Source: Candidatus Moraniibacteriota bacterium (lineage in GTDB: Bacteria > Patescibacteriota > Minisyncoccia > Moranbacterales > JAPLXC01). Taken from it: a stretch of 41,027 nt of DNA. Positions 20,728-30,822 of the stretch are shown piece by piece (position 1 is the stretch's first letter; every line of letters starts with the position of its first letter). The stretch spans positions 1 through 41,027 of the forward strand of contig JAPLXC010000010.1 in NCBI GenBank assembly GCA_026396275.1. The letters are read 5' to 3'. A model generated the notes under the pieces. That model was not told where the DNA came from and ran no database searches. It saw nothing but the letters and a program-made list of their open reading frames with translations. Position numbers and translations under genes: made by a program.

Positions 20728-22263
20728 CTACAAAATATCTATTGCCTGCTTTAATCTTTTTAGTGTTTCATCCTTGCCTAAAACCCAGGCGATTTCAAAA
20801 GGCGGAGGAGATTTTTTCTCGCCCGTTAAAGAAACGCGAAGAGGCCAAAGAAGCTCTCCGCGCTTTTCTCCGGCCGCCTCCAATAATATTTTTTCTAAAT
20901 TTTCTTTAGTCCAATCAGCTTCTGAAATATTTTCTGAAATATTTTTTGATTTTTCTAACGAATTTTTTAATTCTTCATCACTCATATTTTTCCAGCGCAA
21001 AAGTTCTTTATCATACTCAACATCCTCAAAGAAAAATCGATCGTTCTCCCCTACTCCGGCAAGGTTTGCCAGTCGTTCTTGTTCAACTGCCAATACTTTT
21101 CGGAGATATTCTTCTGATTTTTTTTCCGGCAGCGCGTTGTTGTAAAAATCTTTTCTCTTGAAAAATTCCAGCGATTCTTGATAAAGTTCGGAAATTGTTA
21201 ATTTTTTAATGTATTGAGAGTTTATCCAGTCCAGTTTTTTCAAATCAAAAATTGCTCCGGCTTTGTGAACTTTTTTCAATTCGAACTCTTTAACAAGTTC
21301 ATTGAGAGAAAAAAATTCTTTTGTGCTTCCTTTGCCCGGATTCCAGCCCAAAAGCGCCACGAAATTAATGATTGCCTCCCTGAGATACCCTTTTTGAATG
21401 TAGTCCTCAACGCTAACATCCCCCTGTCTCTTGGATAACTTTGTCCGATCAGGATTTAAAAGCAGCGGCAAATGGGCAAATTTAGGCGGTTCCCAGCCAA
21501 ACGTTTGATAAAGCAAAATATGCTTGGGAGTGCTGGGAAGCCATTCCTCACCGCGGATTACATGAGTAATTTTCATTAAATGATCATCCACTACGCCGGC
21601 TAAATGATAAGTGGGATATCCGTCGGATTTCAGCAGTACTTGGTCGTCAATCGTTCCGGTTTCAAATTTTACGGCTCCCCGGATGATGTCGGAAAATTCC
21701 AGGGTCTCGCCGGGGTCAATTTTCAGCCGGATCGTGCGCGGACAATTGTTTTTTAAATTTTTATTTATTTCTTCCTGAGTTAAATTCTTCAGGCAATATT
21801 TGTCATACATCGGCGCTTGCTTTGCGGCAATCTGGTCTTTTCTCATTTGATCCAGCCGCTCGGGTGTGCAAAAACAATAATATGCTTTTTCTTCCTTAAC
21901 TAGCTGTTCAGCGTATTTCTGATAGATATCTAGGCGTTCCGACTGGATGTATGGTCCGTACTCCCCTATTTCGGCAATTCCTGGATAATTTTTCGATTCA
22001 ATAAATTTGGAATTTGGAATTTGGAATTTGGAATTTTTTAAGTATGTTCCTTCATCATAATCAAGTCCCGCCCACTGCAAAGATTTTATTAAATTCTCTA
22101 CCGATTTCTTGACATGCCGTTTCTGGTCAGTATCCTCAATGCGCAGAATAAAAGTTCCGTTATTCTTTTTGGCAAACAAATAATTATATAAGGCACTGCG
22201 AAGCCCCCCAATATGCAAATATCCGGTTGGCGAAGGTGCGAATCTGACACGAATTTTATTCAT
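20728..22263 (-). CDS. gltX: Glutamyl-tRNA synthetase
   Basis: 511 aa class I synthetase. It charges tRNA-Glu (and perhaps tRNA-Gln, if GatCAB exists). HIGH-type motif HIGG (17-20), ERLDIYQKYAE, a zinc-site-like set Cys130-x-Cys132 ... Tyr153/Cys157, DGYPTYHLAGVVDD, and KLSKR (275-279). The C-terminal anticodon-binding domain is shortish. An in-frame insert at residues 75-98, partly made by a CCAAATT heptamer array, sits between DYDEG and EYGPYIQSERL where other GltX proteins are only a few residues long. A 12-bp unit is also tandemly repeated at about 20920-20945. No SD. Confidence 0.96.
   Translation of the reverse strand: MNKIRVRFAPSPTGYLHIGGLRSALYNYLFAKKNNGTFILRIEDTDQKRHVKKSVENLIKSLQWAGLDYDEGTYLKNSKFQIPNSKFIESKNYPGIAEIGEYGPYIQSERLDIYQKYAEQLVKEEKAYYCFCTPERLDQMRKDQIAAKQAPMYDKYCLKNLTQEEINKNLKNNCPRTIRLKIDPGETLEFSDIIRGAVKFETGTIDDQVLLKSDGYPTYHLAGVVDDHLMKITHVIRGEEWLPSTPKHILLYQTFGWEPPKFAHLPLLLNPDRTKLSKRQGDVSVEDYIQKGYLREAIINFVALLGWNPGKGSTKEFFSLNELVKEFELKKVHKAGAIFDLKKLDWINSQYIKKLTISELYQESLEFFKRKDFYNNALPEKKSEEYLRKVLAVEQERLANLAGVGENDRFFFEDVEYDKELLRWKNMSDEELKNSLEKSKNISENISEADWTKENLEKILLEAAGEKRGELLWPLRVSLTGEKKSPPPFEIAWVLGKDETLKRLKQAIDIL
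22004..22036. repeat. In-frame heptamer array (AATTTGG ×4.7) in gltX
   Basis: Four perfect AATTTGG units plus AATTT; on the coding strand CCAAATT repeats give KNSKFQIPNSKF in the catalytic domain of GltX. Confidence 0.95.
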
Positions 22264-22271
22264 TTAAATAT

Positions 22272-22347
22272 GTCATCCCGGACTTGATCCGGAATCCAGA
22301 TAAACAAATTTTTATATTTTCTGGATTCCTGCATTCGCAGGAATGAC
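22272..22347. repeat. GTCAT...ATGAC palindromic element (76 bp)
   Basis: It starts GTCATCCCGG and ends CAGGAATGAC. Inside are CCGGA/TCCGG and CTGC/GCAG mini-hairpins, with GGAATCCAG pairing to CTGGATTCC (9 bp). It lies between gltX and wecG/tagA. Same family as 22618-22700 and 30729-30803. Confidence 0.8.
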
Positions 22348-22353
22348 ATTGTA

Positions 22354-23106
22354 TTATTTAAAAAATACTTTTATTGGAAAAATTATTATTGCGTTAAATA
22401 TTCTTCTGAACCTTTTTGGCTGCTGAATCAGCCGGAAAAGCCATTCGAGGCCCAAATCTCGCATAAAGCGCGGCGCGCGGCGCAGTTTACCGGTGACAAA
22501 ATCAAAACTGCCACCGACTCCTACGGCTAGCTTTATTTTACCATTTTTCAGCGTATTTAGAAATTTTTCCTGATTCGGATGGCCAAAGTTACAGAAAACA
22601 ATGTCACTATTAAAAATGTCATTTCGAGCATGGCCGAGAGATCTACTTGAAATTTTAAAATTAGATTCCTCAGCTTCGCTATCACTTCGCTCGGAATGAC
22701 AATTCATATTCAATCCCTCAATCTTTAAATCTGGATAAATTTTTCTTATCGCGTCTCTCGTTTTCTCCCAATTGCTTAGTCCCCTATTATTAGCGACTAA
22801 ATAAACACTTAATTTTTTATCATTTGCCGTTCTTAAAATTTCCCACATTAAATCAACTCCGGATATTCTGACCTTGAGTTTCCCGCCGAGCCGCCAAAAA
22901 GCAAATTTAATGCCAGCCCCGTCGGCTAGGTTAAGATCGCAATTGTTGAGTATATCTCTAAATTCCCTGTTCTTTTGAGCCGCCAAAATAAATTCGGGAT
23001 TAATTGTGGCGATTTGATGAAATTTTTCAGCGCCCAAAAAATTTTCTATTTTTTCAATAATTTCTTTTTTCTCCAAATTATCAATCCTGACATTTAAAAT
23101 ATTCAT
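22354..23106 (-). CDS. WecG/TagA/CpsF family glycosyltransferase carrying an in-frame palindromic-repeat insertion
   Basis: 250 aa from ATG 23106; a GTG 12 nt upstream is the alternative. Family motifs: TINPEFI (TagA T-x-N), NLADGAGIKFA with the catalytic-type Asp, VYLVA, then FCNFGHPNQEKFL and VGVGGSFDFVTGKLRRAP. These enzymes transfer an N-acetyl-mannosaminuronic or N-acetylmannosaminyl residue to undecaprenyl-linked sugar. Between IEGLNMN and NSDIVF about 28 residues (135-163, CHSERSDSEAEES...GHARND) are encoded by a GTCAT-type palindrome at 22618-22700. The frame is intact and the motifs on both sides are kept. The membrane-binding C-terminus is present. Confidence 0.9.
   Translation of the reverse strand: MNILNVRIDNLEKKEIIEKIENFLGAEKFHQIATINPEFILAAQKNREFRDILNNCDLNLADGAGIKFAFWRLGGKLKVRISGVDLMWEILRTANDKKLSVYLVANNRGLSNWEKTRDAIRKIYPDLKIEGLNMNCHSERSDSEAEESNFKISSRSLGHARNDIFNSDIVFCNFGHPNQEKFLNTLKNGKIKLAVGVGGSFDFVTGKLRRAPRFMRDLGLEWLFRLIQQPKRFRRIFNAIIIFPIKVFFK
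22618..22700. repeat. GTCAT...ATGAC palindromic element translated in frame (83 bp)
   Basis: GTCATTTCGAGC (22618-22629) and GCTCGGAATGAC (22689-22700) are terminal inverted repeats with one mismatch, enclosing two further small stems. It is located inside the wecG/tagA reading frame. Confidence 0.88.
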
Positions 23107-23156
23107 AATATATTTCACATTATCATGGTATATACTTGATACATACTACGTATATA

Positions 23157-23781: not shown

Positions 23782-25797
23782 ATGAACAAAAATGATAAAA
23801 ATTTCATTATTGACATTATTCCCCTGACGCGAATTCCCCTTTCCCGCCAGCAGTATTTTTCCTATGAATTCAGCCGGGAATTGCCGGCAGGAACGCTGGT
23901 AACTATTCCTTTATTTCGCCGCTTTGTGCAGGGTATAGTAGCTGTCAGCCGATCTGATTTTCACCGGCTGGGAAATATCCGTCTTAAAAAAGTTGAAAAA
24001 ATAATCGAAGAAAAATCTCTTACCCCCGAACAGCTGGAACTGGCTCAATTCATTTCGGACTATTATATCTGCCCTCTGGGAGTGGTATTAAAGTTTTTTG
24101 TGCCAAAACGTACTAAGGCGCGAAAGAAGTATAATGTATCAAGTATTATGTATAATGTATTGCCCAAAATTATACTTACAAGAGAACAAGAAGAAGCTGT
24201 AAAAGAAATATCCAAAAAAAATACATTATACAAGATACATGATACTAAATACTTATTATTCGGCCCGGCGGGCTCCGGCAAAACGGAAGTTTATATTCAT
24301 TCAATCCTGAAACTTAGGGAAAAAAATAAAAAATGCCAATTTCTGGTCCTGGTTCCGGAACTTATGCTTACTTCCCAAGCAATTGAACGCTATGGTGCGC
24401 ATTTACGAGCCGAGGAAATCGCAATTCTGCACAGCAAAATCTCCAAGGGAGAATTTTACCGCCAGTGGCAAAGAATAAAAATGGGCGAAGCTAAGCTTAT
24501 CATTGGTACCCGCATGGCTGTCTTCGCGCCTTTTAAAAATCTAAAATTAATCATCATCGACGAGGAACAGGATGTTTCTTTTAAACAGTGGGATATGAGT
24601 CCCCGCTATGATGCCCGGAAGGCGGCCGAAAAACTGGCTCAAATTCATCAGGCGAAAGTCTTGCTTGGATCCGCTACACCAAGTATTGAATCATATTATA
24701 AAGCATTGAATAAAGAATATGAGTTATTAAAATTATCAGGGTTACAGATTACAGATTACAGATTACAAGAACCTAACATTGAAATCATTGATATGAAAAA
24801 AGAGCGCTGGATAAAAAATTACTCCCCTATTTCAAGGGTCCTGAAGTCGGAAATTGAATACGCTCTAAAAAATAAACTGCAAACCATTTTATTCGTTAAC
24901 CGCCAGGGCATGAGTTCCTTTTCTATCTGCGCTAACTGCCGGACAGTCCTGCGCTGCGCCCGCTGCGACCGGGCCCTCGTTTATTCAGCTGATGGCACTT
25001 ACCGATGCCTGCACTGTTCCAATAAAACAGGAGTGTTTGCCGCTTGTTCCAGTTGCAAGGGCATGGCGTTTCGCAATATCGGATTTGGGACTCAAAAAGT
25101 CGAGCAGGAAATCAAAAGGTATTTCCCCGGAGCGCGCGTGAGAAGAGCTGATTTTGAAACAATGAAAAAATTAAAAGAAATCAAGGATCTTTACCGTGAA
25201 TTTACCAATGAAAAAATCGACATTTTAATTGGAACTCAAATGATTACCAAGGGATGGAACAGCCCCCAAATAGGACTAACCGGCATCATTGATGCCGATA
25301 ACTTGCTTTCACTGCCTGATTTTAGAGCCGGGGAAAGGGCTTTTCAGTCCATTGTGCAACTCGCCGGGCGAGTAAGAAGGCCTGCCGGATCTTCACCGGG
25401 AAAGGTGATAATTCAAACATACAACCCGGAAAATCCTATTATCAAAAGCGCCGCCAAAATGGATCTTGAAGGATTTTATCAGAAGGAAATAGAAGAAAGA
25501 ATTTCCTTGCAGTATCCGCCAATGGCCAGATTTATAAAAATCGCGTTTCAAAATACCAGCCAAAAAAAAGTTGAAAAAGAAGCCGAAAAGGCCTATTATG
25601 ATCTAAAGGGATTGGAAAATATAATTGTCTCAGAGCCCCAAAATCCATTAGTTCCGCGAAGGCGTGAGAAATTTAGAAAACAAATTATAATTAAAATTAA
25701 GAACCATTCTAAGGAAATACCTCCGGCATTGTTAAAAATGCTGAAAAAATTGGGGAGCGGTTGGATAATTGACGTTGATCCGATCTCCATAGTGTAA
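23782..25797 (+). CDS. priA: Primosomal protein N' (replication restart helicase PriA)
   Basis: 671 aa. It rebuilds the replisome at stalled forks. An N-terminal DNA-binding part precedes the helicase: Walker A GPAGSGKT (161-168), Walker B DEEQ (260-263, where DEEH is usual), LGSATPSIESY, and KGWNSPQIGL...DFRAGERAFQ...AGRVRR (GRAGR is usual). Eight zinc-binding cysteines lie between 383 and 425 in four CxxC pairs. Heptamer arrays are translated at about residues 116-127, 147-158 and 321-329; the first two flank the LTREQEEAV Q-motif-like segment. Leaderless start. Despite these, the catalytic motifs are intact. Confidence 0.95.
   Translation: MNKNDKNFIIDIIPLTRIPLSRQQYFSYEFSRELPAGTLVTIPLFRRFVQGIVAVSRSDFHRLGNIRLKKVEKIIEEKSLTPEQLELAQFISDYYICPLGVVLKFFVPKRTKARKKYNVSSIMYNVLPKIILTREQEEAVKEISKKNTLYKIHDTKYLLFGPAGSGKTEVYIHSILKLREKNKKCQFLVLVPELMLTSQAIERYGAHLRAEEIAILHSKISKGEFYRQWQRIKMGEAKLIIGTRMAVFAPFKNLKLIIIDEEQDVSFKQWDMSPRYDARKAAEKLAQIHQAKVLLGSATPSIESYYKALNKEYELLKLSGLQITDYRLQEPNIEIIDMKKERWIKNYSPISRVLKSEIEYALKNKLQTILFVNRQGMSSFSICANCRTVLRCARCDRALVYSADGTYRCLHCSNKTGVFAACSSCKGMAFRNIGFGTQKVEQEIKRYFPGARVRRADFETMKKLKEIKDLYREFTNEKIDILIGTQMITKGWNSPQIGLTGIIDADNLLSLPDFRAGERAFQSIVQLAGRVRRPAGSSPGKVIIQTYNPENPIIKSAAKMDLEGFYQKEIEERISLQYPPMARFIKIAFQNTSQKKVEKEAEKAYYDLKGLENIIVSEPQNPLVPRRREKFRKQIIIKIKNHSKEIPPALLKMLKKLGSGWIIDVDPISIV
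24127..24161. repeat. In-frame heptamer arm 1 in priA (5 units)
   Basis: Five 7-bp units: AAGTATA, ATGTATC, AAGTATT, ATGTATA, ATGTATT. They match the reverse complement of the 24220-24254 arm at 29 of 35 positions. Confidence 0.88.
24220..24254. repeat. In-frame heptamer arm 2 in priA (5 units, inverted)
   Basis: Five 7-bp units: AATACAT, TATACAA, GATACAT, GATACTA, AATACTT. An inverted partner of the array 58 nt upstream; together they could form a large hairpin in the mRNA or in single-stranded DNA. Confidence 0.88.
24742..24768. repeat. In-frame heptamer array (TTACAGA ×3.7) in priA
   Basis: Three perfect TTACAGA units and a partial one, translated as LQITDYRLQ between the two helicase lobes. 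Confidence 0.9.
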
Positions 25798-30679: not shown

Positions 30680-30728
30680 ATCCTTGCAAAAAATTACTTA
30701 TTATAAAATCACTGAACAGTATATATTT

Positions 30729-30803
30729 GTCATCCTGAACTTGTTTCAGGATCTAATGAATAAATCGTTATCCCCTAGATTCCGGCTCGGAGGCCGGAAT
30801 GAC
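30729..30803. repeat. GTCAT...ATGAC palindromic element (75 bp) in the groES leader
   Basis: GTCATCCTGA ... CCGGAATGAC, with two hairpins: ATCCTGA/TCAGGAT (30732-30752) and TTCCGG/CCGGAA (30780-30799). Same family as 22272-22347 and 22618-22700. Confidence 0.8.
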
Positions 30804-30822
30804 ATCGACTTTATCACGCTTC

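What the first reader, a model, noticed from the sequence alone, without database searches (positions are those of the whole stretch)
22618..22700. A palindromic repeat has become part of a WecG/TagA enzyme
An 83-bp element with GTCATTTCGAGC/GCTCGGAATGAC ends, of the same family as intergenic copies at 22272 and 30729, is translated in frame as CHSERSDSEAEES...GHARND between two conserved family blocks. This is the behaviour of Rickettsia palindromic elements, which insert in frame into proteins. It means such elements create new peptide segments in CPR bacteria too.
Basis: partly seen in the sequence, partly recalled or inferred. Interest (0 to 1): 0.7.

Follow-up and report, generated by a model that had tools for sequence, protein, structure and literature searches.

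The report
Repeat DNA captured in a glycosyltransferase loop
A short palindromic DNA repeat has been absorbed, in frame, into a surface loop of a sugar-transferring enzyme of a tiny Patescibacteria (Moranbacteria) cell; relatives have absorbed different repeats into the same loop at least six separate times, so repeat DNA keeps supplying new protein segments in these bacteria.

Summary
An 85-bp palindrome (22617-22701) lies in frame, without stops, inside a single-copy WecG/TagA gene (22354-23118, minus strand; Pfam 127 bits). It encodes CHSERSDSEAEES...GHARND.

The elements in this genome are head-to-head dimers of TGTC-tagged hairpins. They match the published CGTC superfamily of REPs, which includes Rickettsia RPE-4 and RPE-6. 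The WecG copy is a divergent, long-armed type, not a close copy of those at 22272 and 30729.

In 435 kb of the own genome, 9 of 26 elements are translated inside genes: WecG, LeuRS, AlaRS, RecG, a Xer recombinase, two GT4 glycosyltransferases and two O-antigen ligases.

But those are other palindromes: 7 of 106 WecG genes of the order carry one, all in this loop, and the tree needs about six gains. Many other loops are heptamer iterates. LeuRS shows the same at one site.

Best reading: a tolerated surface loop repeatedly captures repeat DNA, and selection keeps only net frame. The palindrome interior is unconstrained, and no mobilising enzyme was found.

In-frame REPs are known elsewhere. The Patescibacteria case and the recurrence at one loop appear unreported in the papers I could search.

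The parts
22354..23118 (-). WecG/TagA-family glycosyltransferase gene (254 aa), single copy in the genome, intact
   Evidence: ORF and Pfam PF03808 127 bits; PDB TagA 7mpk 144 bits; Foldseek TagA E 3.5e-16; one match in G000
22617..22701 (-). Palindromic element, TGTC-tagged head-to-head dimer with long imperfect arms, translated as CHSERSDSEAEESNFKISSRSLGHARNDI (28 codons plus the shared I)
   Evidence: absent from most homologues
22617..22645 (+). One arm of the dimer: TGTCATTTCGAGCATGGCCGAGAGATCTA
   Evidence: sequence; tag and arm listed
22662..22701 (-). Other arm of the dimer: TGTCATTCCGAGCGAAGTGATAGCGAAGCTGAGGAATCTA (codes CHSERSDSEAEES)
22271..22348 (.). Intergenic REP dimer between gltX and wecG (8-bp-stem units TGTC-ATCCCGGA-CTTGA-TCCGGAAT-CCA and TGTC-ATTCCTGC-GAAT-GCAGGAAT-CCA)
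30728..30804 (.). Intergenic REP dimer between a GroES-like gene and an S41-type peptidase gene (genes named from their sequence, not searched)
22004..22036 (-). Heptamer iterate (AATTTGG)n translated in frame in gltX (NSKFQIPNSKF): the other class of repeat that fills the WecG loop in relatives

Best explanation
The segment is a TGTC-tagged REP dimer of the CGTC-REP (RPE-like) superfamily that landed, or was copied, into a tolerated surface loop of WecG, the stretch before the strand DIVFCNFG. It survived because its net effect on length kept the frame and it had no stop in that frame. The enzyme core stays under purifying selection, while the loop is free filler in which only net frame matters. 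Independent lineages of Moranbacteria therefore captured different palindromes, or heptamer iterates, in the same loop. Shown: anatomy, frame, absence in relatives, recurrence, low-confidence loop in the structure model, free internal turnover in one pair of related genomes. Inferred: mobility, the mobilising enzyme, translation in the cell and neutrality.
For:: palindrome in frame in an intact WecG; usual loop 14-20 aa, with long loops made of other palindromes in G044/G012, G054, G114, G126 and G128; the tree without loop columns needs 6 changes for 7 carriers, and congeners of G114 and G128 lack the insert; 7 of 7 palindromes among 106 WecG ORFs (82 kb) lie in this loop; 29 of 91 other loops exceed the 99th percentile of same-gene windows for iterated repeats, the strongest with a period of 7; pLDDT 55-79 in the insert, above 90 almost everywhere else. 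G044 and G012 inserts share ends but differ by internal indels of 23, 1, 5, 3 and 13 nt with net 3 nt, while flanks show third-position excess; 9 of 26 elements in 435 kb are in frame in genes; alignments to solved LeuRS, AlaRS, RecG and XerC-like proteins break at the repeat peptide. LeuRS of G011 has another palindrome at the same site; 40 of 52 half-units have an 8-bp stem and 48 of 52 the TGTC tag.
Against: The palindrome often takes the place of native loop residues (WecG own: 8 native + 28; G114: 6 + 20; usual 14-20), so it is not a clean insertion. No target-site duplication was seen. The Y1 transposases of the own genome are not flanked by such repeats. The in-gene list for the own genome was collected through open ORFs, so genes broken by elements would be missed; the WecG survey is by homology and less exposed to this. 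Tree support is modest (43 of 95 inner branches open).
Confidence: 0.88

Rival explanations
1. The loop is an ancient, functional extension of the enzyme that happens to look palindromic, with repeat likeness by convergence or low complexity.
For: Some family members outside this order have longer loops with a helix here (TagA HHGYFTEEEENKIIEEINNKG), and the model puts a helix at A1 residues 154-165.
Against: The peptide is the translation of a repeat type found about 26 times in 435 kb of the genome. Carriers have unrelated inserts, and congeners lack them.
Confidence: 0.04
2. Targeted capture: a DNA-level process (recombination between repeats, or a transposase with a site preference) directs palindromes and heptamer iterates to this loop.
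For: All 7 palindromes in 106 WecG genes are in one loop, LeuRS has two different palindromes at one site in two genomes, and loops are swapped, not only extended. Iterates and palindromes share the same loops.
Against: No shared target sequence or duplication at element borders. Elements also sit in nine different genes and many intergenic places. Tolerance of the loop explains the pattern without targeting.
Confidence: 0.08
3. The ribosome skips or the RNA loses the hairpin (like mitochondrial byp elements or an intron), so the peptide is never made.
For: The element can form a strong hairpin.
Against: All inserts found in WecG genes are stop-free and in frame, and internal indels between G044 and G012 sum to a multiple of three; neither is needed if the segment is removed.
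Confidence: 0.02
4. Assembly or binning artefact, or a decayed gene.
For: The genomes are metagenome assemblies.
Against: Carriers come from different assemblies. The ORF is intact and single-copy, conserved residues T, D, R and Q are kept, and flanks of the G044/G012 pair show third-position excess.
Confidence: 0.02

Closest known systems
CGTC-tagged REPs (Di Nocera et al. 2013, PMC3733652)
   Same: Tag (TGTC variant), 8-bp stem starting AT, 4-5 nt loop, CCA-like tail, head-to-head dimers; some copies inside genes; no link to tyrosine transposases
   Different: Published for Proteobacteria, Chlorobi, Bacteroidetes, Spirochaetes and Thermotogae, not Patescibacteria. Here the tail is mostly CTA, some loops are 6 nt, and the WecG copy has long imperfect arms
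Rickettsia palindromic elements (RPE; Ogata et al. 2000, 2002, cited in PMC10969869)
   Same: Palindromes of about 100 bp, many in frame inside unrelated protein genes; RPE-4 and RPE-6 are CGTC REPs
   Different: Several unrelated palindrome types recur here in one loop of one gene across species, and native loop sequence is replaced; no single preferred frame beyond stop avoidance
REPs at about the same site of recB in two Xanthomonas species (PMC3733652)
   Same: Different REPs at one site of orthologous genes
   Different: Two species there; about six independent gains in one order here, plus LeuRS
Protein-coding palindromic repeats of Wolbachia (WPE; cited in PMC3733652)
   Same: In-frame palindromes in genes of a reduced genome
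   Different: Reported unrelated to CGTC repeats; not compared by sequence here
Heptamer short tandem repeats as in cyanobacteria (from own knowledge)
   Same: Period-7 iterates
   Different: Here they are translated inside WecG, gltX, priA and LeuRS loops; not compared by sequence

Membership tests
CGTC/TGTC-tagged REP superfamily (genome's elements) | CGTC or TGTC tag at one end of the unit | tested here: met
   48 of 52 half-units TGTC, 1 CGTC
CGTC/TGTC-tagged REP superfamily (genome's elements) | 8-9 bp stem beginning with A-T pairs, 4-5 nt loop | tested here: met
   40 of 52 have an 8-bp stem; loops 5 (24), 4 (9), 6 (8); AT start in 38 of 41
CGTC/TGTC-tagged REP superfamily (genome's elements) | short tail, mostly CCA | tested here: inconclusive
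   CTA 26, CCA 13
CGTC/TGTC-tagged REP superfamily (genome's elements) | head-to-head dimers predominate | tested here: met
   most halves pair head to head within 150 nt
CGTC/TGTC-tagged REP superfamily (WecG copy itself) | 8-9 bp perfect stem in each unit | tested here: not met
   both arms have long imperfect stems and no short stem, though tag, AT start and CTA tail fit
Rickettsia palindromic elements (RPE-like behaviour) | in frame in protein genes that stay open | tested here: met
   9 genes in 435 kb; WecG in 6 relatives
Rickettsia palindromic elements | sequence identity to a named RPE family | not tested
   no RPE sequences were compared; link only through the paper's statement on RPE-4 and RPE-6
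RAYT-mobilised REPIN | transposase gene flanked by the same repeats | tested here: not met
   two Y1_Tnp ORFs (33 bits) in the own genome, none flanked by such palindromes
WecG/TagA/CpsF glycosyltransferase (PF03808) | family profile and fold | tested here: met
   127 bits against a cut-off of 27.4; TagA 7mpk E 3.5e-16, TMt 0.87
WecG/TagA/CpsF glycosyltransferase (PF03808) | enzyme activity with the insert | not testable with these tools
   needs expression and assay

The most novel reading that the evidence does not exclude
Loops of envelope-polysaccharide enzymes in these bacteria are exchanged repeatedly by repeat DNA through a DNA-level process (repeat-mediated recombination or an unknown mobiliser of CGTC REPs) that prefers certain genic sites, so repeats act as a running source of loop variation and not just tolerated debris. 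Five of the nine in-gene copies found lie in polysaccharide genes (WecG, two GT4, two Wzy_C; small sample without a baseline).
Probability: 0.12. Interest if true: 0.75.

Novelty: new member of a known kind. Interest (0 to 1): 0.55.

Why it matters
In-frame palindromes in proteins are best known from Rickettsia, with scattered cases in other bacteria. Here they are common in a Patescibacteria genome and hit essential genes (LeuRS, AlaRS, RecG). One loop has been filled at least six times by different repeats in related species, some within a genus. That gives a natural replicate experiment on how repeat DNA becomes protein, with empty-site relatives at hand. It also warns annotators that strings such as HSERSDSE, VIPAQAGIQ and DSRFRGND inside proteins are repeats and not domains.

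Tried and rejected
Protein-adapted elements: intergenic copies have no excess of open frames (27 against 34.9 expected), so the 'preferred frame' is stop avoidance.
Target-site duplication: flanks show none.
RAYT as mobiliser: not supported, in line with the published lack of association.
A composite DNA pattern (element end plus the FCNFG codons) over 384 genomes of the class found only known cases and one unrelated hit.
I took about half of the genome as stretches, as the tool's message offered, and did not rebuild the rest.
One first scan for elements with loose ends gave no more hits than shuffles, so it was replaced by half-unit matching with zero control hits.
Papers: nothing found on such elements in Patescibacteria; subscription journals are not held.

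Full report
Observation. The window is contig C10 of a draft genome of 810 kb. Its nearest named relatives are Candidatus Moranbacteria/Moraniibacteriota, Patescibacteria. The WecG/TagA ORF is 22354-23118 on the minus strand (Pfam PF03808, 127 bits), the only copy in the genome. An 85-bp palindrome, 22617-22701, is read through in frame as CHSERSDSEAEESNFKISSRSLGHARND. Its ends and fold are beyond chance. TagA motifs with T, D, R and Q are kept, and the AlphaFold model (pLDDT 93, pTM 0.90) matches TagA crystal structures. The insert is the only weak region of the model (55-79).

What the element is. I matched half-units in 434,882 bases of the own genome (52 hits, none in reversed controls) and curated 26 elements. 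Of the 52 half-units of these 26 elements, 48 carry the tag TGTC, 40 have a stem of exactly 8 bp, nearly all starting with AT, with loops of 4-6 nt and tails CTA or CCA. They sit head to head. This is the published description of CGTC REPs, whose tag is often TGTC, and to which RPE-4 and RPE-6 of Rickettsia belong (PMC3733652). The intergenic copies at 22271 and 30728 are of this kind. The WecG copy shares tag, layout and tail but has long imperfect arms, so it is a divergent member at best.

Not only WecG. Nine of the 26 elements lie in frame inside genes: WecG, LeuRS, AlaRS, RecG, a Xer recombinase, two GT4 glycosyltransferases and two Wzy_C proteins. A tenth outside the sample is a thymidylate-kinase-like gene. 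Alignments to solved relatives break at the repeat peptide: LeuRS 27 residues against 3, RecG 44 against 11, Xer 30 against 2, with a gap also in AlaRS. This list was gathered through open ORFs, so broken genes are not counted.

Recurrence. Among 106 WecG ORFs of the order, the loop between PDLKIEG and DIVFCNFG is usually 14-20 residues. Seven carry a GTCAT...ATGAC palindrome, all in this loop and nowhere else in the gene. The inserts are unrelated to each other apart from the pair from one genus: CHSERSDSE (own), VIPAQAGIQ/DSRFRGND (G044, G012), VIARRETTKQS (G054), CHSHAAPAGRQVGG (G128), CHSELAEES (G126) and CHAELVSAS (G114). A tree without the loop columns needs six changes (support modest). 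Congeners of G114 and G128 lack the insert. A further named relative, L249, has another one. In LeuRS, own and G011 carry different palindromes at one site.

The rest of the loops. Of 91 palindrome-free loops, 29 exceed the 99th percentile of same-gene windows for iterated repeats, the strongest with a period of 7. The window itself holds six period-7 iterates and none of period 6, 8 or 9, two of them in frame in gltX and priA. So the loop takes up repeat DNA of two kinds.

How it works. G044 and G012 share the insert's ends, but its inside differs by several indels that are not multiples of three, and the sum is three. The flanks differ mostly at third positions (46 and 29 third-position differences). 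So the enzyme is constrained while the insert is held only to net frame. Start frames are CHS or VI and ends mostly ND or DD. The remaining frames tend to hold stops, and intergenic copies are no more open than shuffles. No target duplication was found, and no transposase is linked, as published for CGTC REPs. The native loop is often partly replaced, so simple insertion is not the whole story.

Known or new. In-frame palindromes are known in Rickettsia and Wolbachia and in several free-living bacteria, including tRNA synthetase genes, and one case of two species with REPs at about the same recB site. Neutral placement in loops was proposed there. New, as far as the searched papers go, are the Patescibacteria setting and the repeated capture in one loop by different repeats.

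Noticed in passing
window 22004-22036 and 24742-24767: Period-7 iterates translated in frame inside gltX (NSKFQIPNSKF) and priA (LQITDYRLQ); further ones at 2381, 16321, 16601 and 36637. Period 7 only.
   Followed up: partly
window 24124-24257: Inverted pair of AAGTATAATGTAT-type iterates in priA, translated as KYNVSSIMYNVL and NTLYKIHDTKY on either side of the helicase start.
   Followed up: no
L012 (own LeuRS), residues about 405-569: About 165 residues between aligned parts where T. thermophilus LeuRS has about 20; a large extra segment besides the palindrome. Several relatives have gaps of hundreds of bases near the palindrome site.
   Followed up: no
L110 (G113, genus g35): WecG frameshifted inside the same loop at a GAAGCTTAGCTTC palindrome; the congener L087 has an intact longer form.
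   Followed up: partly
L090 (G073): WecG ORF runs on without a stop into a GltX-like protein (739 aa); gltX lies next to wecG in the window too.
   Followed up: no
own-genome in-gene elements: Five of nine are in envelope-polysaccharide genes; both GT4 copies sit just before the C-terminal domain strand (KYLLFIGRL, KFFLVVSR).
   Followed up: no
L188 about 2516 (G114): The open frame upstream of the WecG start is also repeat-derived (APACRQAGSEGS), with a GATGAC half-unit.
   Followed up: no
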